Assembly (NCBI RefSeq): GCF_014697375.1
Contig: NZ_JACJRS010000019.1
Coordinates: forward strand, 1-64,000
Source of the DNA: Phormidium sp. FACHB-1136
GTDB lineage: Bacteria; Cyanobacteriota; Cyanobacteriia; Phormidesmidales; Phormidesmidaceae
Length of the DNA stretch: 64,000 nucleotides
Direction of reading: 5' to 3'
Part shown: one piece after another, positions 51,004-64,000 of the stretch
Numbering within the stretch: position 1 is the stretch's first letter
Layout of the letters: each line of letters opens with the position of its first letter
Translations under genes and position numbers: made by a program
Notes under the pieces: model-generated
Seen by the model: only the letters and a program-made list of their open reading frames with translations
The model's database searches: none
Told to the model about the DNA's origin: nothing

Positions 51004-54000
51004 TCACACGCTGAGGGTGGTGAGTTTGACCAGGAGCGGATCGACTAGGGTTTGTTGTTTGTCAGCCAGCAGTTGTTGGATGTAGGCCCGCAGCCCTTGG
51101 CTTTGCTGGGGATTGGGCACATACACCTGGGGGGTAGGGCGGCTAAACAGGGGAGCCATGCCCAGCCGTTTGAGGGCCGGATCTGCGCTAGGAATCAGCA
51201 AGGGGCTGGGGGTGGCGGTAGGGAGAAGGCCGGGGGGCAAACGTCCTTCTAGCAGGGCCATGAGGTGGGCTTCACATACCGATACATTGAGCCCCTGTTC
51301 CTGGAGCAGGTGGAGGATACCGCTGAGGGGCAGGGGTTGATCCGTACAGGTGCGCAGCAGTTCCATCAGCAGAAACATATCGCTGTACTGGTGGCGGTTG
51401 AGGTCGAGCACCTGGGGATAGCGGGCCAAATTCACCAGGCCATAGGCAACACGGCTGCAACTGGGGGGACGGTCGCTGTGGTAGGTGTCTTGGACGATGG
51501 TGGCGTTGGGGAACTTTTGCCGTAGCCAGCGGGCCATCTTGGGCAGTGATGCACTGCCGCCCGTACAAACCACCTGATGCACCGCCTGACTGGCCATGCC
51601 CACTTCGCTCAGCAGGCGATTGAGATGGCCGTTGATGCGCTGAATGTAGGGCAGGATGATTCGGTCTTCTAGATCCTTGCTGCGCACCACCCAGTGTTGA
51701 TCGGCTAAATCAAGCTCAAATTGGGACTGGTGCTGGAGGATGATTTTGAGGTGGCGGGCCGCATCTAAAACGCTCTGCCCCAACGCCGAGGATTCTAGCC
51801 GCTGCCAGATCCGTTGCCGACGGGCGAGGTCGGGTTCGGCGGGGCGGGGTAGATCTAGGTCATCCAGGCGTAGGTCGGCCCAGTGGGCATTCTCCAATTC
51901 TGGCACCTCTGCCTGCCAGCCCCAGCCATTGGCCCCAGTGGATTGACGGGCGGGCGGGCGGGCGCGAGGCTGCCGACGGTCGGCGGGGTGCAGCAGTTGG
52001 CAGACGATATCGAGGTCAATGGCATCCCCAGCATAGGCGAGGGAATGGAGAGCAAAATCTTCGTAACTCAGGTTAGCCAAGGGTTCTGGGATATTGACGA
52101 GGCCCACTTCGGTGACGGTGGATCCGGCGGAAATCACCACGGTGCCCCCTGTCCACTGACAGGCGTAGAGGGTTTGCTGTTGGATGGGCTGGCTTTGGCC
52201 CTGGGGCACGGGGGTGGCGGGATCGGGCAGGCCCGACAACACCGCCGCAATGGCATCCTCAATGAAGTACACATCATCGGCACTAGCCACCAGCCCTGCC
52301 CCTAGCACCGCTTCTCTGAGGTTAAAGGTGTAGGTGTCGGGCCAGTTGGCGGGGTAGCTCACCACCACTCCGGCTAACTGCCCTAGGGCTTGGGCAATGG
52401 CCTCGGCCTTCAGCCCCACAGCCCCTAAGGTAAAGGACGCCTCGCGCTGGAGAGCCTGGGGTAGGGTGGCCAAGAGCCCCTGCAAACTGTCTTGAAACGC
52501 CTTTAGGGGGAGTCGGGTAGCCTCCGACCACTGGATTTGTGGCTGGGAGGTGGCCCCACAACCGAAGGGAATGCCAAGGCGCAAAAACGGCTTCAGATTT
52601 TTGAGCGTTACCGTACTATCGTCGGGGTCACCCTCGCTCCAGGTGACGGTGAGAGCCGATGATCCAACGGACTGCACTTGGTAATCGCCGCTAGCCGCCA
52701 CCCGCACCAACCCCAAGGTTGGCAAGCGGAAAAACTTATCGGCGGTGGCCCCAGAAATGCCATTATCCACCCAATAGAGCGGGTGTACCTGGCCGCTGTA
52801 TCGTTCTAGCAGCACCGCCGATAGTCCCGTGGTGCCCAAATCTAGCCCTAAAAACCACAGGGATTCTGGGTCACGCCGAACGGGGGGCGGTGGTGGAGGC
52901 TCGGCGGGGGGCAGGGGTTCCGCCAGCAGGGCTTCCAGGTTGGCCAAGTCAGCCTCGTCTAGGGCGGAACCCCCTGAGGAGATCGGCGGGAAGACGGGTT
53001 GTCCAGGCGTTGGGGAGGCCAGGGGAACGGTCTGCGTGGGGGTGGCCCGATCCGTCAAGACTTCATCGACAAGATCCTGCGCCACATCGCCCGTTAAACT
53101 GGCAATCCGGTCTTGATCCAGGGAGCCCAAGATGCTGTCTAGGCTCATTTCCCGGTGCCAGTCACTATCTCCATTCACCGTCATGTCTGGCGTCATATCT
53201 GGCGGCCCAGAGGACATCGCACCCTCGTTACCTAGGGACGCTAGGGAAATATCGGGAGAAATTTCGTTACCTAGGGATGTTAGGGAGATATCGGGAGAGA
53301 CTTCGGCGGCGGCAGGTTCCGGTTCCAGCGCTCCCGTATCGCCTAGGCTCAAATCCAGGTCATCCAGGGTAATCGAGAAATCAAAGGGGTCGGTAGCGGC
53401 GGATGGTGGACTAGGATCTGGATCCGAACCCCCAAAATCTACCCCCCACGCCGCTAGGGAGTCGTCACCCGGACGAGCGGATCCAGCGTTGCCTAGGGAT
53501 GGTTCTGAAACGGCAAACTCTTCCAAGGTTGGCCCAGACGTGCCGAAGTCCTCCAAGGTTGGCCCAGACACAGGGAACTCATCCAAAGTCGGTTCGGTAG
53601 TCCCGAAGTCCTCCAAGGTTGGCCCAGACGTGCCAAAGTCCTCCACCGTTGGCCCAGATATGGCAAACTTCTCCAGGGTTGGCTCGGTAACCCCAAAGTC
53701 CCCCAGGGTTGGCCCAGACGTGCCAAAGTCCTCTAGCGTTGGCCCAGCTATGGTTGGGGCCGTTGGCGCAGGCTCCTGGGGTGCGGATGATTCCCCCCAA
53801 CCCAGGCTATCCAAGCTATCCCCCTCTAAGCTGAACGACAGATCGGGGACTTCCACGCTGGGCTGAATCGGCGGGGTGGGCAGGGAGGCGGGGGAATCTT
53901 GGTCGGTCTCCGGGCCACCGAAATCTCCAAACACGTCCTCGGCGGTTACGGCCTGCGTTTCCGGCTCTGGCAGGGGGAAGCGAGGATCAAGGCGAATATC

Positions 54001-56571
54001 GCCAATTAAGTTTTCTAGGCTGAGGGATGGATCCGATACCTCAGGAGCAGCGGTGGGCGGGGTCGGTGGCCCCTCACCAAACAGGTCAAGTCCGACATCG
54101 GAGGGCATCGGATCCACGGTGGGGTCTGACGCTGAGTCCGTCGCGAACTCGCCTAGGGCATCCAGGGTCAAGCCCGCATCTGGGGGGTCTGGCTCCGTTG
54201 GCCCCAAGGTCAGGTCTAAGTCCGACAGAATCATCGATAGGCTATCCGCCGTACTTAGGCCCGGATCGATGGGCGGGCGAGCCGGAACACTGGGGGGATC
54301 GGGCAGGAGCCTGGGGGCTAAATCGCCAAACAGGTCATTGCCCAAGGTCTTGCTCAGGTCTTGAATCGGATCACGACCAAGATTCTGATTCAGGTCGTCA
54401 CCCAGGTCGCCGCCCAGGTCGCCGCCCAGGTCGTCGCCAAAGTCGCCAAACACATCCGCCGCCGTTAACTCTGGGCTGGTGGAGGCATCGACCGGGAAGG
54501 AGGGCTCTGGGGGCGTGGGGGGGGGAAATTCCGTCGCAAAGCCGCTAAACAGCTCCCCGGTGATCAGGCCGGAGCGACCTACGGGCGGTTCTAACGGCTC
54601 CGCTGGAGAGACATCTCCAAACCCATCCACCGCCTCGAAGCCCTGGACATCAGCGACATCCTGAACATCAGCGGCGATATCGCCAAATAAATCCTCGGCG
54701 TCGGTGGGCAAATCGTCTACGGGGGTATCCTCCATGGCCACCTGCTGCGCCCACTGATCCACCCGTGTAGACCAGTCCACCTCGTCCTCCACGGGGGCAT
54801 TGAGAGCCTCTGGCAACCCCTCCCTTGGGGCGTCTACCGGAACTGGAAGCATTGTGGACTCCAAGGTTTCTAAGTCCTCGGAGAGGGTGCTGATGACCTC
54901 GCTATTGAGGGGTAAGGCGTAGCTATCGGCCTGGATAGACTCGGCGGCGGTGAGGAGGTCTTCGTCCTCTGGAGCCTGAATTTGCTGGCTGGGGTTCAGC
55001 AGAATATCCAGGGCATCCAGTTCGGTGGAGGCCCCTGATCCATCGGGCAAGAGTTCATCGAGGGAGGCAATGGTGGCGACGGCGGGAGCTGGGCTGGGGA
55101 TAGACTCTGCCAGGGTGCCCTCCACCAGTTGGGTTAGGCCATCGGCGGGGGGGGCAACCTCGACAGCCTCAGCCTCCCCCAGGTCTTGGGGGCCATCATC
55201 GGCTAGGGATCCCCAGTCCTGGCTGTCGGGTGGGGGTGGGATAAACCCGAGCGGAGCCTCTGGCCGATCTAGGGGGCCAGTCGTCCTCGGTTGCCCCTGG
55301 GGCGGGCGAAGCGCACTATCGCCAAACAGGGTTTGGTAGAGATCATCAATCTCCTCGGCGTCCTCGGTTTCGTCTTCAGCGTCCTCTGGTACGGCATCGA
55401 CTTCGGCTTCTGGGGCCACCGGAACCGACACCGACGCGCTGGGATCGGAATCGGCTAGGTTAAGCTGGCCCAGAATTTGCAGCGGCTCCAGGAAACGAGT
55501 GGGCTCGTCCTCGGCCTCTAGGCTAGGTGTCGGCGCGGCCTCATCCCCATCGAGGCGCAACTGCGAAATTTCCTCGTCAATTTGTAGCAGCGTGACTTCA
55601 TCGTCGTCAAAGTCAATGTCGAGATCGAGCCCCTCTAGGTCGAATTCCTCTTCTTCGCTGGCCAAGACCTCTGGCGATGGGGGCGGCGTCACGACTTCGG
55701 CCACGGGCAGTTCGGGGGGGGCCGTGCGTCCCGGCGACTCTAGATAGGCTAGGGCTTCCTGGTTCATGCGCTGGGCCACATGGTTCACCAAGGCGCTGAA
55801 CATCATTTCGCCCTGCTGCCCCAGGGTGTGCATTTTGTTGAGCCCCTGGTTGAGGGAATCTTGGTAGCTGTAAACGCTCTGTTGCAGGGCATCGAACACC
55901 GCCCGCAGGGATAGGTCTAGGTTGCGGATTAAGTCGTCGGTTTGGGCCTGAATTTGCTGGAGATAGGCCAAGCGCTGGGCCGGGGAGAGTTCCCCCAACC
56001 CCTCGGCGATGGACGGATCATCGGGGGCCGATTGGCTGAGCAGATAGTTGTTGGATACCGAGGTTTCTAGGCGACGCACCGCCTGTTCTACCTGCCCCGC
56101 CAGATGGGCATCGAGGTGTTGGGTCAGATCCGCCAAGGTTCTCTCCCACAGCCCTGGGGAGAGGAGGGGGTTCCCCTGGGCGGCTTCTAGGCGCTGCTGC
56201 TGAAGCTGTTGCACCTCCAACAACAGGGTTTCGCGCTGTTGGCGCAGGGCCGATACTTCGTTTTGCAGTGGGGTTAAAATCTGTAGGGTTTGCCCCCGTA
56301 GGTACTGCATTTCCTGGAGCAAGGCATTCAGCACTTGGCTCGCCGCCTGACTGGTGGCATCCCCAGGCAGACCAGCGGCCCCAGCGGGCAAGCTATCCAT
56401 ACCCTGAGGATCGGCCTGCATTTGGGCTAGGCAAGCCCTCGCCTTCGCTAAAAGCTGGCGTTGCTGCTGGGTGGCGCTCGACATCACCCAGGGCAGCTTT
56501 GGTGCAGCCTCCCCCAAGGTTGCGTCAATCTCAGCAATTAAGGCTTCTAATTGTTGCCGCTGCACAGTCAC
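51004..56571 (-). CDS. Giant protein: coiled coil, long acidic repeat region, Hsp70/actin-fold C-terminus
   Basis: The 1855-residue protein has three parts. Residues 1-280 are helical with coiled-coil stretches (ALRQQRETLLLEVQQLQQQR). About 290-1235 is acidic, Pro/Gly/Asp-rich and probably disordered, with tandem repeats and scattered LFGD-type motifs. From about 1238 an Hsp70-like ATPase starts: GLDLGTTGLSAVLLE with Asp1244, a central VVSYPANWPD...IEDAIAAVLSG segment, VVISAGSTVTEVGLV at the phosphate-2 position, and VVCTGGSASLPKMARWL at the adenosine loop. The phosphate-2 loop lacks the DxGGGT form, so hydrolysis may be impaired. A 150-residue helical tail replaces a recognisable substrate domain. 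The start is GTG at 56571 (a second GTG lies two codons on). Function unknown; a scaffold that uses an actin-fold switch is my inference. Confidence 0.8.
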   Translation of the reverse strand: MTVQRQQLEALIAEIDATLGEAAPKLPWVMSSATQQQRQLLAKARACLAQMQADPQGMDSLPAGAAGLPGDATSQAASQVLNALLQEMQYLRGQTLQILTPLQNEVSALRQQRETLLLEVQQLQQQRLEAAQGNPLLSPGLWERTLADLTQHLDAHLAGQVEQAVRRLETSVSNNYLLSQSAPDDPSIAEGLGELSPAQRLAYLQQIQAQTDDLIRNLDLSLRAVFDALQQSVYSYQDSLNQGLNKMHTLGQQGEMMFSALVNHVAQRMNQEALAYLESPGRTAPPELPVAEVVTPPPSPEVLASEEEEFDLEGLDLDIDFDDDEVTLLQIDEEISQLRLDGDEAAPTPSLEAEDEPTRFLEPLQILGQLNLADSDPSASVSVPVAPEAEVDAVPEDAEDETEDAEEIDDLYQTLFGDSALRPPQGQPRTTGPLDRPEAPLGFIPPPPDSQDWGSLADDGPQDLGEAEAVEVAPPADGLTQLVEGTLAESIPSPAPAVATIASLDELLPDGSGASTELDALDILLNPSQQIQAPEDEDLLTAAESIQADSYALPLNSEVISTLSEDLETLESTMLPVPVDAPREGLPEALNAPVEDEVDWSTRVDQWAQQVAMEDTPVDDLPTDAEDLFGDIAADVQDVADVQGFEAVDGFGDVSPAEPLEPPVGRSGLITGELFSGFATEFPPPTPPEPSFPVDASTSPELTAADVFGDFGDDLGGDLGGDLGDDLNQNLGRDPIQDLSKTLGNDLFGDLAPRLLPDPPSVPARPPIDPGLSTADSLSMILSDLDLTLGPTEPDPPDAGLTLDALGEFATDSASDPTVDPMPSDVGLDLFGEGPPTPPTAAPEVSDPSLSLENLIGDIRLDPRFPLPEPETQAVTAEDVFGDFGGPETDQDSPASLPTPPIQPSVEVPDLSFSLEGDSLDSLGWGESSAPQEPAPTAPTIAGPTLEDFGTSGPTLGDFGVTEPTLEKFAISGPTVEDFGTSGPTLEDFGTTEPTLDEFPVSGPTLEDFGTSGPTLEEFAVSEPSLGNAGSARPGDDSLAAWGVDFGGSDPDPSPPSAATDPFDFSITLDDLDLSLGDTGALEPEPAAAEVSPDISLTSLGNEISPDISLASLGNEGAMSSGPPDMTPDMTVNGDSDWHREMSLDSILGSLDQDRIASLTGDVAQDLVDEVLTDRATPTQTVPLASPTPGQPVFPPISSGGSALDEADLANLEALLAEPLPPAEPPPPPPVRRDPESLWFLGLDLGTTGLSAVLLERYSGQVHPLYWVDNGISGATADKFFRLPTLGLVRVAASGDYQVQSVGSSALTVTWSEGDPDDSTVTLKNLKPFLRLGIPFGCGATSQPQIQWSEATRLPLKAFQDSLQGLLATLPQALQREASFTLGAVGLKAEAIAQALGQLAGVVVSYPANWPDTYTFNLREAVLGAGLVASADDVYFIEDAIAAVLSGLPDPATPVPQGQSQPIQQQTLYACQWTGGTVVISAGSTVTEVGLVNIPEPLANLSYEDFALHSLAYAGDAIDLDIVCQLLHPADRRQPRARPPARQSTGANGWGWQAEVPELENAHWADLRLDDLDLPRPAEPDLARRQRIWQRLESSALGQSVLDAARHLKIILQHQSQFELDLADQHWVVRSKDLEDRIILPYIQRINGHLNRLLSEVGMASQAVHQVVCTGGSASLPKMARWLRQKFPNATIVQDTYHSDRPPSCSRVAYGLVNLARYPQVLDLNRHQYSDMFLLMELLRTCTDQPLPLSGILHLLQEQGLNVSVCEAHLMALLEGRLPPGLLPTATPSPLLIPSADPALKRLGMAPLFSRPTPQVYVPNPQQSQGLRAYIQQLLADKQQTLVDPLLVKLTTLSV
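53227..53304. repeat. 39-base tandem duplication inside the giant gene
   Basis: Two imperfect 39-base units start at 53227 and 53266. They encode ISPDISLASLGNE and VSPDISLTSLGNE-type 13-residue units. A second short tandem, built of CCAGGTCGCCGC-like 12-mers, lies at about 54390-54440 and encodes a DLGG/DLGD run. Confidence 0.75.
53482..53751. repeat. Nine tandem 30-base repeats (decapeptides) with a 90-base super-period
   Basis: On the minus strand nine 10-residue units run without gaps (residues about 941-1030): IAGPTLEDFG, TSGPTLGDFG, VTEPTLEKFA, ISGPTVEDFG, TSGPTLEDFG, TTEPTLDEFP, VSGPTLEDFG, TSGPTLEEFA, VSEPSLGNAG. Every third unit has Glu before Pro where the others have Gly, so the array is really three copies of a 30-residue unit. 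Confidence 0.95.
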
Positions 56572-59893: not shown

Positions 59894-62134
59894 TTAGCCA
59901 GGGGCAACAATTTCAAACAGTAGGGAGAGGGCGGCGACGGCATTGGCCTCCAGGCGGCGTGGCCCGGAGGGTGGGGGGCTATCGTTACCGCTGCGGCGAC
60001 TGTCGAGGGTGCTGAACATATCCTGCATGATATCCGGGGCCTGGGCCGATTCGTCGGCGCTGCGCAGGGTAGAGGCCACGCGGCGCAAGGCGTTCAAGGT
60101 GCTCTGGAGGGAGGTGGGGCTGGCGATCACCAGCAGTTGGGCAATGCCGAGGGGGGCTCTGGCTCGCAGCCTTTCGGACTTAGATGCTCCGGGATCAATA
60201 CGATCTTGGTTAGCATTGTCGCTGGCACGGGGAAGCAGCACACCTACCTCCCCAGCGGCGTTGATGGCCAGCAGCCCCAGGTATAGGGGGATGGCTTCGT
60301 GGTTGGTAACGGTGATGGTGAGCTCCTGGTCTACCGTGATGGTCTGGATGCCCTGGGCGGTGAGCCGGGGGATGATGATGGCGCTGTCGTCACCGCCTCG
60401 GGTGGTGGTGCTGCTGCGCGATCCCTGGTATTCCACTGCGAGGCTGACGTTAATTTGGGAGGCGGTTTGGTTCACCATCAGGGCCAACATGCGCCCCACC
60501 AGCAGGGAGGTCAACTGGGGCTTCAGGCGAAGGCGGAGGGCATCGGCCAAACTTTCCCCAGGGGCACCAAAGGACTCCACCATCAGCGGTTCCTGGGTGG
60601 CCGAAAACAGGCCCACACTACCCACCACTGGGCGACGGGCCACCCCGCTTTGCACCATGCGCTGATCAATCTCGGCGGTGTAGCGGCCCAGGAGAACGTG
60701 GGGCGGCTTGGGGGCTTGGCCCGGTGCCACGGCCACCCATTCGACAAAGCGCAGATCGCTGACTTGGGCCGGGGCGCTGGCCTGTTCGGCGGCGGTGAGG
60801 GTGTCGTCTAGGCCCAGGCGCAGGGTGATATTAGCCGGAATACCCCGCACCTGCTCTTGCAACAGAGGGGTGGCGGGGGCCGCGCCTCGGGTGGTGTTCT
60901 GGGCAGGATTTGCGGGGATCACTTCCCCGGTGGCCCGCAATCCATCCCGACTGATGAGGCGCACGGTGGCGACGGGGTTGCCCTGGGCGTCGATCTGGGT
61001 GAATTCGGCCCCTTGGTCAAAGGCTTCTAAACTGCCGGGGTTCACCCCTCCCAGCCACAGGTTCACCCGGTCGCCAGATCTCGCCCCGGCATTGAGGATG
61101 ACGGCTTCGGCAGCGGGGGCAACGGGAGCCCCATGGTAAATGGGATCTTGGGTGGATCGGGTGACACCCTGGGGATCGTACTCTGGGATTTGGCTGTGTT
61201 TCGTGAGGCTGGTGGTGCTGCGGGCCACCGCTGCAATGGTGGCCGATAGGGGCTGGGCTTCGTGCCAAAGGTGCTGGGTGAGTAGGCAGGTGAAGGCTCC
61301 GGCGGTGAAGCCCTCGAAGGGGTAGTCGGCGGATTGCTGGTTGGCCCTGGCCGATGCCGCCACAAAGCCCCCCCCCTGGCGCGACTCGATTTGTTCGATC
61401 AACTGCTGTGGCCCCCAGCCTAGGCGACTCAGCAGGGTTTGCTGAAACTCGCCCTCGGCCTGGGTGATGGGTGGGGCGGTGCCCGTGCGAGCCTCCAAAT
61501 CGGTGACCTGGGAGCGCATAATCACGTTGCCCCGTTTGCCGCCCCCGGCATAGCAGCAGTCCAGCACTAGGGTGACGTTCTCGGTGGGGAGGGCCGCCCG
61601 CATTAGCAACAGCGTGTGGCCCAGAATGCCCTGCACCTCGCCGCCGCCGCCATCGCTGTCCACGGGCACCAGGGCGGTGTTGAGGCAACTGGCATCGATG
61701 CAATCCTGGTCGGCTTCGTCCAGCAGGGCACGCATCACGATATCTTCGTTTACCCTCACCCCATGGCCAGAGAAGTGCAGCACCACTACATCGTTGGGGC
61801 CAACGCTGTTGAGCAGATACTCGTTGTAGGCCCCTAGGATATTGGCGCGGGTGGCCTGGGCATCGGTGAGCACATGGATATCGACGGGGTTAAAGCCAAA
61901 GCGGTGGATCAACAACTGCCGCTGAAGCTCGACATCGGTGACGGGGCCGTAGAGGCGGTCGCGGGCGGGGTAGGCGTTGATGCCCACCAATAGCGCCACC
62001 TTGCGACGGGTATTCTGGGCCAGGGCGCGGCCATAGCCCTGGCTATAGCGCTCTAGATGGATCTGGCTGAGGCCAATGGCCCCCATGGCACCTAGGGTAC
62101 CCTGCAAAAAATGGCGGCGGTTGAAATGAGTCAT
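59894..62134 (-). CDS. Tat-exported caspase-family protease (orthocaspase) with DUF4384-like tail
   Basis: The 746-residue protein starts with a twin-arginine signal (FNRRHFLQGTLGAMGAIGLS) and then a C14 caspase-like p20 domain: RRKVALLVGINAYP, the His124 site VVVLHFSGHG, and the Cys194 site LVLDCCYAGGG. The His-Cys dyad is complete, so protease activity toward basic P1 residues is expected from the metacaspase-like group. The last 250 residues contain ITVTNHEAIPLYLGLLAINA and GEVGVLLPRA, as in DUF4384 domains. It would act beyond the cytoplasmic membrane. It follows the TPR-CHAT gene by 93 bases on the same strand. Confidence 0.93.
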   Translation of the reverse strand: MTHFNRRHFLQGTLGAMGAIGLSQIHLERYSQGYGRALAQNTRRKVALLVGINAYPARDRLYGPVTDVELQRQLLIHRFGFNPVDIHVLTDAQATRANILGAYNEYLLNSVGPNDVVVLHFSGHGVRVNEDIVMRALLDEADQDCIDASCLNTALVPVDSDGGGGEVQGILGHTLLLMRAALPTENVTLVLDCCYAGGGKRGNVIMRSQVTDLEARTGTAPPITQAEGEFQQTLLSRLGWGPQQLIEQIESRQGGGFVAASARANQQSADYPFEGFTAGAFTCLLTQHLWHEAQPLSATIAAVARSTTSLTKHSQIPEYDPQGVTRSTQDPIYHGAPVAPAAEAVILNAGARSGDRVNLWLGGVNPGSLEAFDQGAEFTQIDAQGNPVATVRLISRDGLRATGEVIPANPAQNTTRGAAPATPLLQEQVRGIPANITLRLGLDDTLTAAEQASAPAQVSDLRFVEWVAVAPGQAPKPPHVLLGRYTAEIDQRMVQSGVARRPVVGSVGLFSATQEPLMVESFGAPGESLADALRLRLKPQLTSLLVGRMLALMVNQTASQINVSLAVEYQGSRSSTTTRGGDDSAIIIPRLTAQGIQTITVDQELTITVTNHEAIPLYLGLLAINAAGEVGVLLPRASDNANQDRIDPGASKSERLRARAPLGIAQLLVIASPTSLQSTLNALRRVASTLRSADESAQAPDIMQDMFSTLDSRRSGNDSPPPSGPRRLEANAVAALSLLFEIVAPG

Positions 62135-62227
62135 GAAACGTGCCTACGGCCTAAACAGTGTGGACAATGTAGTACTACCTGAGACAAGTTCTCTTCCTTT
62201 AGTAGACCCATGGTGTGGTTACAACAT

Positions 62228-64000
62228 CTATTCCCCTAGGCCCATGAAGGTAAAGGCAGCCCAGTTGAGGGGGTCGGGGTGGGTTTGCAGGGTCTCTAGC
62301 ATGGCCTGACGCAGGGCTTGGTCGCGGGTTTCCTCTAGCAGCAGGTGGCGATAGAAGGCCGTCATCAGTTGGGCCGTAGGGGCATCGGGCACCGCCCAAA
62401 GCGACACAATCACCGTGGGTGCCCCCGCCGCCATCAGGGATCGCGATAGGCCGATGACTCCATCTCCGGTAATGTCGCCCCGCCCGGTGTCGCAGGCGCT
62501 GAGCACCACCAGTTCGGCATTCAGTTTAATGGTTTCCAAAATTTCGGCAGAGGTGAGTAGGCCATCTTCGCCATCCCCTGGCGCAAGGGCAATGGCCCCA
62601 GGGATGTCCTGCGTCCCGCCGCCGCCATATTCCAGTAACCCATGGGTGGCCAGATGCACCACCATGGCCTCGCCCACACGTTGTTTGACGGCGGCTTCGG
62701 TGGCTTGGTCGCCAATTAGGGGTTCCGCCCGGTAGACATTGGCAATGGCCAACACCTCCTGTTCCGACCCCGGTAGCGGAGTCAGGGGCGTTGCGGAATT
62801 TCCCACCGTCGGCATGGTGGGGTTGCCGACCAGGAGCAGCCGTTGGGGGGTATAGGTGCTGCCAATCCGGCGAGGGGCACGTTGCTGGCGGCTGAGGGCT
62901 AGGGCTTGAATGGACGGGGCATTCAGAATCGTATGGCGTTCGATTAGGTATTGCCCCTCCTCGTTTTGTAGGGCGGCAAAGGGCACCAAAAACAGCGGCC
63001 CCTGGGGAATAAACACCACCCGATCCCTAGGGTTGGTGGGCAGCAGGTCGGCAATGGGGTCAATCAACAGTTGGTGCAGTTGGCGCAATTGGGCGCTGTG
63101 ATCGACGGTGGTGGGTGCTGCCATGGCCAATTCAAAGCCCCGGCTGCGTACCCCCAGAGAGTCCCGACTGGTGCTGACCAATTCCGCCACATTGGCCGTG
63201 GCAGCGGTGAGGGACATCTTGCGAAAATCCATCTGGCCGCTGGGCTGCACCACCCAAATGTAGATACTGGGGCCATCCGGGCCAGTCTCCACCAGAGAAT
63301 ACTGCACCAGCACACTGCGTTCGGTGCGGGCAATGGCTTGAATGGCGGCAAGGTCGGGGGGTGTGGCGGTGAAGGGCTCTTGCTGTTGCTGGGATAGATT
63401 TTGGGCCAGCATGTCGATGAAGGCGCGGGCGCGACCCCGTTCGGAGGCTTCTAGGGCGGCTTCGGGCCGATTTTGCAGAATGTAGACCTGCTCTAGCCCC
63501 CGGTAGGCCCCCACCTGGCGGTCAAATAGGCTGACCTTGCTGGCATCGGCCTGCACTGTGCCACGCAGACTGTCGAATGCCGTCACGGCTTCGCCAAGGT
63601 AAGTCTCGGCCTCGTCGATGGCTTCCTGGTTCAAATATAGCCAGCCCAGGCTATTCAGGGCGCGGGCCTCCACCTCTCGCCCCCCAATCTCGCGGGCAAT
63701 GGCTAACCCCTGCTGGTAGGCATCCAGGGCTGATTCGGGATCGTTTAAGCCTTGGTGGGCATCGCCCAATCCCAACAGAGCGAGGCTTTCCTCCCGTCGT
63801 AGACCAATTTCGCTGGCCATTTGTAATCCGGCTTGGTAGTCGCTCAATGCCTGGGCCTGATCTCCCCGTGCGATGGCCTCATCTCCCTGGCTCACAAACG
63901 CCCTCACCTCCCTAGCCCGACCGCCCATAGCCCGTGTTCTAGCTAGGGCACTACGCAGGGGGAAGATGATGTCTAGCTCTGCATAAAGGGCCGTGGCTTC
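62228..64000 (-). CDS. TPR-CHAT protease, 5' end beyond window
   Basis: At least 590 residues are visible. The frame is open through the right edge (EATALYAELDIIFPLRSALA precedes the first visible Met), so the N-terminus is missing. Tetratricopeptide repeats occupy the visible start (ALSDYQAGLQMASEIGLRRE, LALLGLGDAHQGLNDPESAL, ALNSLGWLYLNQEAIDEAET). The CHAT domain follows with MVVHLATHGLLEYGG (His) and ELVVLSACDTGRGDITGDGV (Cys), both catalytic residues kept. CHAT proteases are caspase/separase relatives; TPR-CHAT proteins include the Csx29 protease of type III-E CRISPR. Adjacent to a caspase gene, it may be the upstream member of a protease pair. Confidence 0.93.
   Translation of the reverse strand, partial: EATALYAELDIIFPLRSALARTRAMGGRAREVRAFVSQGDEAIARGDQAQALSDYQAGLQMASEIGLRREESLALLGLGDAHQGLNDPESALDAYQQGLAIAREIGGREVEARALNSLGWLYLNQEAIDEAETYLGEAVTAFDSLRGTVQADASKVSLFDRQVGAYRGLEQVYILQNRPEAALEASERGRARAFIDMLAQNLSQQQQEPFTATPPDLAAIQAIARTERSVLVQYSLVETGPDGPSIYIWVVQPSGQMDFRKMSLTAATANVAELVSTSRDSLGVRSRGFELAMAAPTTVDHSAQLRQLHQLLIDPIADLLPTNPRDRVVFIPQGPLFLVPFAALQNEEGQYLIERHTILNAPSIQALALSRQQRAPRRIGSTYTPQRLLLVGNPTMPTVGNSATPLTPLPGSEQEVLAIANVYRAEPLIGDQATEAAVKQRVGEAMVVHLATHGLLEYGGGGTQDIPGAIALAPGDGEDGLLTSAEILETIKLNAELVVLSACDTGRGDITGDGVIGLSRSLMAAGAPTVIVSLWAVPDAPTAQLMTAFYRHLLLEETRDQALRQAMLETLQTHPDPLNWAAFTFMGLGE

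What the first reader, a model, noticed from the sequence alone, without database searches (positions are those of the whole stretch)
59894..64000. Tandem TPR-CHAT protease and Tat-exported caspase: a candidate two-protease module
Two cysteine proteases of the same clan lie head-to-tail 93 bases apart, both with intact His-Cys dyads. The first has a TPR sensor-like region and no visible signal peptide so far. The second has a twin-arginine signal and a DUF4384-like tail. A cytosolic CHAT protease could process or gate a caspase before or after export, or the two could act in one cell-fate or defence pathway. TPR-CHAT proteins are known effectors (Csx29), and caspase-CHAT neighbourhoods deserve attention. 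The functional link is inference.
Basis: partly seen in the sequence, partly recalled or inferred. Interest (0 to 1): 0.72.

Follow-up and report, generated by a model that had tools for sequence, protein, structure and literature searches.

The report
Exported CHAT–caspase protease gene pair
A cyanobacterium carries two caspase-clan protease genes as neighbours, both predicted to be exported from the cytoplasm, and related cyanobacteria repeatedly keep the same kind of pair together, which points to a proteolytic partnership in the cell envelope whose substrate is not yet known.

Summary
A 746-aa Tat-signal orthocaspase (59894-62134, -) lies 93 bp downstream of a TPR-CHAT gene (62228 to beyond 64000, -), and both dyads are intact. 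The full gene starts near contig position 65281 with a Sec-type signal peptide, and a second signal-peptide TPR-CHAT lies just upstream. The 'cytosolic CHAT gates the caspase' model is therefore unlikely; both proteases should meet outside the cytoplasm (predicted, not shown).

The pairing is real. A CHAT gene sits under 500 bp upstream on the same strand in 11 of 12 close caspase relatives, and in 0 of 20 control caspases of another subfamily. Across the wider subfamily the pairing changes state at least 16 times. The CHAT partner is swapped between CHAT lineages while its place is kept. Close relatives often add two TPR-protein genes and two-partner-secretion (TPS) genes. The window's genome has no TPS domain hit, so a TPS substrate cannot be the function here.

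Best reading: a modular extracytoplasmic two-protease unit, in which the TPR-CHAT probably controls or is controlled by the orthocaspase. Which cleaves which, and the substrate, are unknown. The families are known; I found no report of the combination.

The parts
59894..62134 (-). Tat-exported orthocaspase, 746 aa: Tat signal, C14 p20 domain, long beta-rich tail with DUF4384
62015..62134 (-). Tat signal (residues 1-40: MTHFNRRHFLQG...ALAQ); RR invariant in 78/78 aligned caspases
   Evidence: AF2 pLDDT below 50 for residues 1-41
61160..62005 (-). Peptidase_C14 domain; H124 at 61763-61765, C194 at 61553-61555; D192, R201, R207 also invariant
60113..60334 (-). DUF4384 (residues 601-674), borderline score
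62135..62227 (.). 93-bp intergenic gap; no terminator-like or promoter-like consensus found in it
62228..64000 (-). 3' part of the exported TPR-CHAT protease gene; the full gene runs to contig position 65281 (ATG) or 65350 (TTG), outside the window
63575..63781 (-). best-scoring TPR_12 stretch within the window; further TPRs lie on both sides, including beyond 64000
62240..63091 (-). CHAT domain; H at 62642-62644, C at 62492-62494

Best explanation
A modular, extracytoplasmic two-protease unit. The TPR-CHAT protein is threaded out by Sec and folds outside the cytoplasm (periplasm or thylakoid lumen). There its TPR superhelix binds an envelope ligand or partner and controls the CHAT protease. 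The orthocaspase folds in the cytoplasm and crosses by Tat, probably as a low-activity precursor cleaving after Lys/Arg. The two meet only outside the cytoplasm, where one most likely activates or limits the other and then cuts envelope, surface or secreted proteins. Shown here: adjacency, its conservation and recurrence, partner swapping, intact dyads. Predicted from sequence: export of both. Inferred: the functional link, Lys/Arg specificity, the cascade, its direction and its substrates.
For: Close relatives: CHAT under 500 bp upstream, same strand, in 11/12, gaps -17 to 124 bp; controls 0/20. Within 500 bp, 43 loci have a same-strand CHAT and 4 an opposite-strand one (p=2.8e-9). Well-supported branches force at least 16 changes of the pairing state on the caspase tree (22 by parsimony), and paired CHATs of the close group are not one clade (AU p=1.35e-6): the position is kept while the partner changes. 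CHAT and caspase overlap by 4 bp in Leptolyngbya ULC186, L. boryana plasmid p1 and Leptolyngbya NIES-3755 plasmid3, suggesting translational coupling. Export: RR in 78/78; a signal-peptide heuristic is met by 25/34 paired CHATs versus 63/377 background genes and 2/34 shuffles; the window CHAT start is supported by orthologue alignment. The nearest solved CHAT fold is the transmembrane anti-sigma factor DdvA. The nearest solved relatives of the caspase are metacaspases.
Against: No activity, localisation or interaction data. About 64% of the wider caspase subfamily has no adjacent CHAT (40/110 paired), so the caspase can work alone or with an unlinked CHAT. CHATs are abundant (9-22 matches per genome), so some proximity may reflect protease-rich islands. 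Unpaired CHATs in the same loci often have signal peptides too (24/38), so export is a trait of this CHAT family, not of the pair. The signal-peptide test is a home-made heuristic, not SignalP. No complex could be modelled.
Confidence: 0.55

Rival explanations
1. Protease islands without a direct link: exported CHATs, caspases, trypsin-like and subtilase proteases gather in envelope gene islands by duplication and shuffling, and neighbours need not act on each other.
For: The genome has 22 CHAT and 8 C14 matches. Contig C241 carries a caspase, a trypsin-like protease, several CHATs and a subtilase in under 25 kb. Most of the wider caspase subfamily is unpaired.
Against: Same-strand, close upstream position in the close clade, strong strand bias, 4-bp overlaps, and none in 20 control caspase loci.
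Confidence: 0.22
2. A maturation module for two-partner-secretion exoproteins: CHAT and caspase trim or release TpsA at the envelope.
For: TpsB-TpsA-CHAT-caspase clusters in CCP3 and Nodosilinea LEGE 06152; TPS genes beside the pair or the caspase in Acaryochloris and Leptolyngbya SIOISBB. Most TPS matches in five same-genus genomes lie near CHAT genes. Two single proteins carry TPS and CHAT domains together.
Against: The window's own genome has no TPS or ShlB match although the TPS model rings in 5 of 5 same-genus genomes tested with it, so this cannot be the function here. Many paired loci elsewhere also lack TPS.
Confidence: 0.13
3. Signal transduction like DdvA: the TPR-CHAT is mainly a ligand sensor, with the membrane TPR protein and the exported TPR protein of the operon passing the signal on; proteolysis is secondary.
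For: Best fold match of the CHAT half is DdvA, a transmembrane anti-sigma factor. Relatives' operons encode a TPR protein with apparent membrane helices and a TPR protein with an apparent signal sequence downstream; the own genome has this gene pair on contig C26.
Against: No sigma or anti-sigma gene was recognised beside the pair; the His/Cys dyad is invariant in the aligned CHATs, which argues for protease activity.
Confidence: 0.06
4. A cytosolic defence or cell-death effector pair like Csx29 or other intracellular caspase/CHAT systems.
For: Same clan and domain order as Csx29; PADLOC 'caspase' and 'TPR' models match.
Against: Signal sequences on both; no CRISPR-type repeat or cas gene in 13.4 kb; no NTPase or adaptor-domain partner seen; the PADLOC matches are generic domain matches.
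Confidence: 0.04

Closest known systems
Cyanobacterial orthocaspases / metacaspases (C14)
   Same: C14 domain with His/Cys dyad and an Asp just before the Cys pair; the fold matches Arabidopsis MC9 and MC4; DUF4384 tails are known on orthocaspases (PMC8283722, PMC7475262). A Tat-like signal was noted for pseudo-orthocaspases (PMC6426788).
   Different: Active dyad plus Tat signal plus a recurrent exported TPR-CHAT partner; the passages I searched in those papers do not describe CHAT neighbours.
DdvA, transmembrane anti-sigma factor (PDB 8rot, 8rw5)
   Same: Nearest solved CHAT by profile (3.2e-10) and by fold (3.8e-14).
   Different: DdvA is a membrane anti-sigma factor; here the TPR-CHAT follows a signal peptide and no anti-sigma region was found.
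Csx29 / TPR-CHAT of type III-E CRISPR (Craspase)
   Same: TPR array followed by CHAT protease; fold match E about 1e-12.
   Different: Exported here; no cas gene or CRISPR repeat in the examined stretch; weak at sequence level (E 0.4-0.5).
HetF (CHAT-TM-TPR divisome protein of Anabaena)
   Same: Cyanobacterial CHAT plus TPR protein.
   Different: In HetF the CHAT region is N-terminal (aa 1-555; PMC8406250); here the order is signal peptide, TPR, CHAT.
Multi-peptidase conflict systems of multicellular bacteria (PMC7159879)
   Same: Combine caspase-like and trypsin-like proteases in proposed cascades.
   Different: Built around NTPases and adaptor domains; a text search of that paper finds no CHAT; none of those partners was seen here.

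Membership tests
Orthocaspase / metacaspase-like C14 | C14 p20 domain with His-Cys dyad | tested here: met
   PF00656 E=1.1e-19; H124 and C194 invariant 78/78
Orthocaspase / metacaspase-like C14 | Acidic S1 residue before the catalytic Cys, implying Lys/Arg specificity | tested here: inconclusive
   D192 is invariant 78/78, as expected; its S1 role is taken from metacaspase knowledge, not tested
Orthocaspase / metacaspase-like C14 | Proteolytic activity and activation mode | not testable with these tools
   needs biochemistry
TPR-CHAT protease family | CHAT domain with His/Cys dyad after TPRs | tested here: met
   CHAT 245.6 bits, TPR_12 126.7 bits over the full ORF; dyad conserved
Csx29 / type III-E Craspase | Encoded with cas7-11 and a CRISPR array | tested here: not met
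   none in the 13.4 kb L021 stretch; the rest of the genome was not searched for cas7-11
Csx29 / type III-E Craspase | Cytosolic, no signal peptide | tested here: not met
   Sec-type signal at the predicted start
HetF | CHAT at the N-terminus, with TM and TPR regions | tested here: not met
   CHAT is C-terminal here; HetF layout from PMC8406250
DdvA-type anti-sigma factor | Cytoplasmic anti-sigma region and internal TM | tested here: not met
   Pfam finds only TPR and CHAT in the full ORF; N-terminal signal peptide instead
Two-partner secretion system | TpsA (PF05860) and TpsB (PF03865) in the genome | tested here: not met
   none in the own genome; the TPS model was validated in five relatives; the ShlB model was not validated by a genome search, only seen to match relatives' proteins
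Bacterial gasdermin operon | Gasdermin gene beside the protease | not tested
   no gasdermin model was searched

The most novel reading that the evidence does not exclude
A widespread cyanobacterial zymogen cascade working outside the cytoplasm, built of two caspase-clan proteases exported by different routes (Sec TPR-CHAT and Tat orthocaspase), with interchangeable CHAT sensors and, in relatives, secreted TPS proteins as substrates or carriers, including CHAT proteases fused to a TPS export domain.
Probability: 0.25. Interest if true: 0.8.

Novelty: new variant of a known kind. Interest (0 to 1): 0.55.

Why it matters
Work on cyanobacterial orthocaspases mostly asks about cell death inside the cell. 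A large, active-site-intact subfamily that is Tat-exported and recurrently paired with an exported TPR-CHAT would move part of that question to the cell envelope, and names a concrete partner to test. Small plasmid-borne, overlapping pairs (Leptolyngbya boryana p1) give a simple test system.

Tried and rejected
Cytosolic Csx29-like effector: rejected on signal sequences and absence of cas genes nearby. TPS maturation as the general function: rejected for this genome because no TPS domain is found. First labels T430 and T376 were contaminated by TPR matches and were rebuilt from non-TPR parts; the gene strings should not be read for those two labels. A CHAT-caspase complex was not modelled: the tool folds single chains only. 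The viral fold search gave mainly metacaspases of large eukaryotic viruses. Literature searches for CHAT with two-partner secretion, and for orthocaspase with periplasm and operon, found no paper; most subscription papers are not covered.

Full report
OBSERVATION. The caspase is 59894-62134 (746 aa) and the CHAT ORF stops at 62228, 93 bp upstream. Pfam gives Peptidase_C14 (1.1e-19), a borderline DUF4384 (27.1 bits, cut-off 27), CHAT (2.9e-73) and TPRs. The window cuts the CHAT gene. In the contig (C101, 69375 bp) it is a 1040-codon ORF; alignment with orthologues puts the start at an ATG at contig position 65281, which opens with MHLRATLFLSLPLPFLVFSADIASALG, a Sec-type signal. A second TPR-CHAT (1061 aa, also with a signal sequence) lies upstream on the same strand at contig 65458-68643, just outside the window. 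The genome holds 22 CHAT and 8 C14 matches.

THE PROTEASES. In 78 aligned caspases, R6, R7, H124, D192, C194, R201 and R207 never vary. The caspase model (pLDDT 77, pTM 0.83) matches plant metacaspases best, with a long beta-rich tail. The CHAT half (pLDDT 80) matches the transmembrane anti-sigma factor DdvA, Csx29 and separase. Its His and Cys are invariant in the aligned CHATs.

IS THE PAIR MORE THAN CHANCE? I took about 60 relatives of this caspase from same-family and same-class genomes, 80 named loci from GTDB genomes and, as control, 20 caspases of another subfamily from the same kinds of genome. After removing duplicates, an upstream same-strand CHAT within 500 bp was found in 11/12 of the close group (at least 500 bits), 12/63 and 14/36 in two wider bands, 0/7 in the most distant band and 0/20 controls. 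Within 500 bp, 43 loci have a same-strand and 4 an opposite-strand CHAT. A density-based expectation is about 0.1% per locus. These tests ignore relatedness, so the tree matters more: 40/110 caspases are paired, well-supported branches force at least 16 changes of state, and the window's group of ten is 9/10 paired. Pairing is therefore both clustered and repeatedly gained or lost. The caspase tree is a FastTree tree with some long branches.

PARTNER SWAPPING. The nearest caspase relative (CCP3, 72% identical) stands beside a CHAT only about 36% identical to the window's, whereas Nodosilinea nodulosa, G014 and a second CCP3 locus keep orthologous CHATs (57-59%) beside about 60% identical caspases. 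Leptolyngbya ULC186 has a CHAT of another lineage overlapping the caspase by 4 bp. One clade for the paired CHATs of the close group is rejected (AU p=1.35e-6). The CHAT tree is a quick tree with long branches, so lineage details are provisional.

OPERON CONTEXT IN RELATIVES. The fuller close-relative order is [TpsB, TpsA], CHAT, caspase, membrane TPR protein, exported TPR protein. The last two have no curated family beyond TPR and weak fn3 matches; their membrane and export character is read from the sequence by eye. In the window's genome these two lie on another contig (C26) next to another CHAT, so the cluster looks split. TPS is absent from this genome by the PF05860 search, which rings in all five relatives tested with it.

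LOCATION. The Tat motif occurs near the N-terminus of 120/124 caspases and of 4/377 background genes. A simple signal-peptide rule is met by 25/34 complete paired CHATs, 24/38 other CHATs, 63/377 background genes and 2/34 shuffled N-termini; most of the nine failures still look signal-like by eye. Sec substrates cross unfolded, so an exported CHAT should not be an active protease in the cytoplasm.

MECHANISM. Shown: adjacency, conservation, swapping, intact dyads. Predicted: export of both. Inferred: they share a compartment and a pathway. I judge a functional link likely (about 0.75), joint extracytoplasmic action somewhat less so, and any particular direction of cleavage no better than about 0.3. 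The combined statement gets 0.55.

NOVELTY. Both families are known. The literature I could search gives orthocaspase domain lists, a Tat-like signal on pseudo-orthocaspases (PMC6426788) and DUF4384 tails (PMC8283722), but I found no description of the exported CHAT-caspase pair; most subscription papers are not held. I therefore call it a new variant of a known kind.

Noticed in passing
L225:7834-13134 (G014) and L224:881-6997 (G010): Single proteins with an N-terminal TPS secretion domain and a C-terminal CHAT protease domain; in L225 a TpsB gene lies directly upstream. This looks like a CHAT protease carried out by two-partner secretion.
   Followed up: partly
L021:9459-12644 (contig C101:65458-68643), outside the window: Second signal-peptide TPR-CHAT (1061 aa) upstream of the pair, from a different CHAT lineage.
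   Followed up: partly
L117 and L229 (own contig C241): Protease island: caspase, trypsin-like protease, several CHATs (one with CHASE2) and a subtilase within 25 kb.
   Followed up: partly
L223:7234-9637 (own contig C26): The membrane TPR and exported TPR genes that follow the caspase in relatives sit here, away from the caspase, beside another CHAT.
   Followed up: yes
L230:519-5287 (Leptolyngbya boryana IU 594 plasmid p1): Plasmid-borne CHAT-caspase pair overlapping by 4 bp, divergent from a DUF1822 and CHASE2 gene set; the pair also overlaps by 4 bp in Leptolyngbya sp. NIES-3755 plasmid3 (L232).
   Followed up: partly
L139:5374-7877: The CHAT beside the nearest caspase relative is split into 758- and 94-aa ORFs by a frameshift or assembly error.
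   Followed up: no
window 51004-56571 (-): 1855-aa protein with many SGPTLEDFG-type repeats and what looks like an actin/Hsp70-like ATPase region at its C-terminus.
   Followed up: no
G006, G009, G014, G018 TPS matches: Most TPS genes in these same-genus genomes lie within several kb of a CHAT gene; in G009 a DUF928 gene is next to the CHAT.
   Followed up: partly
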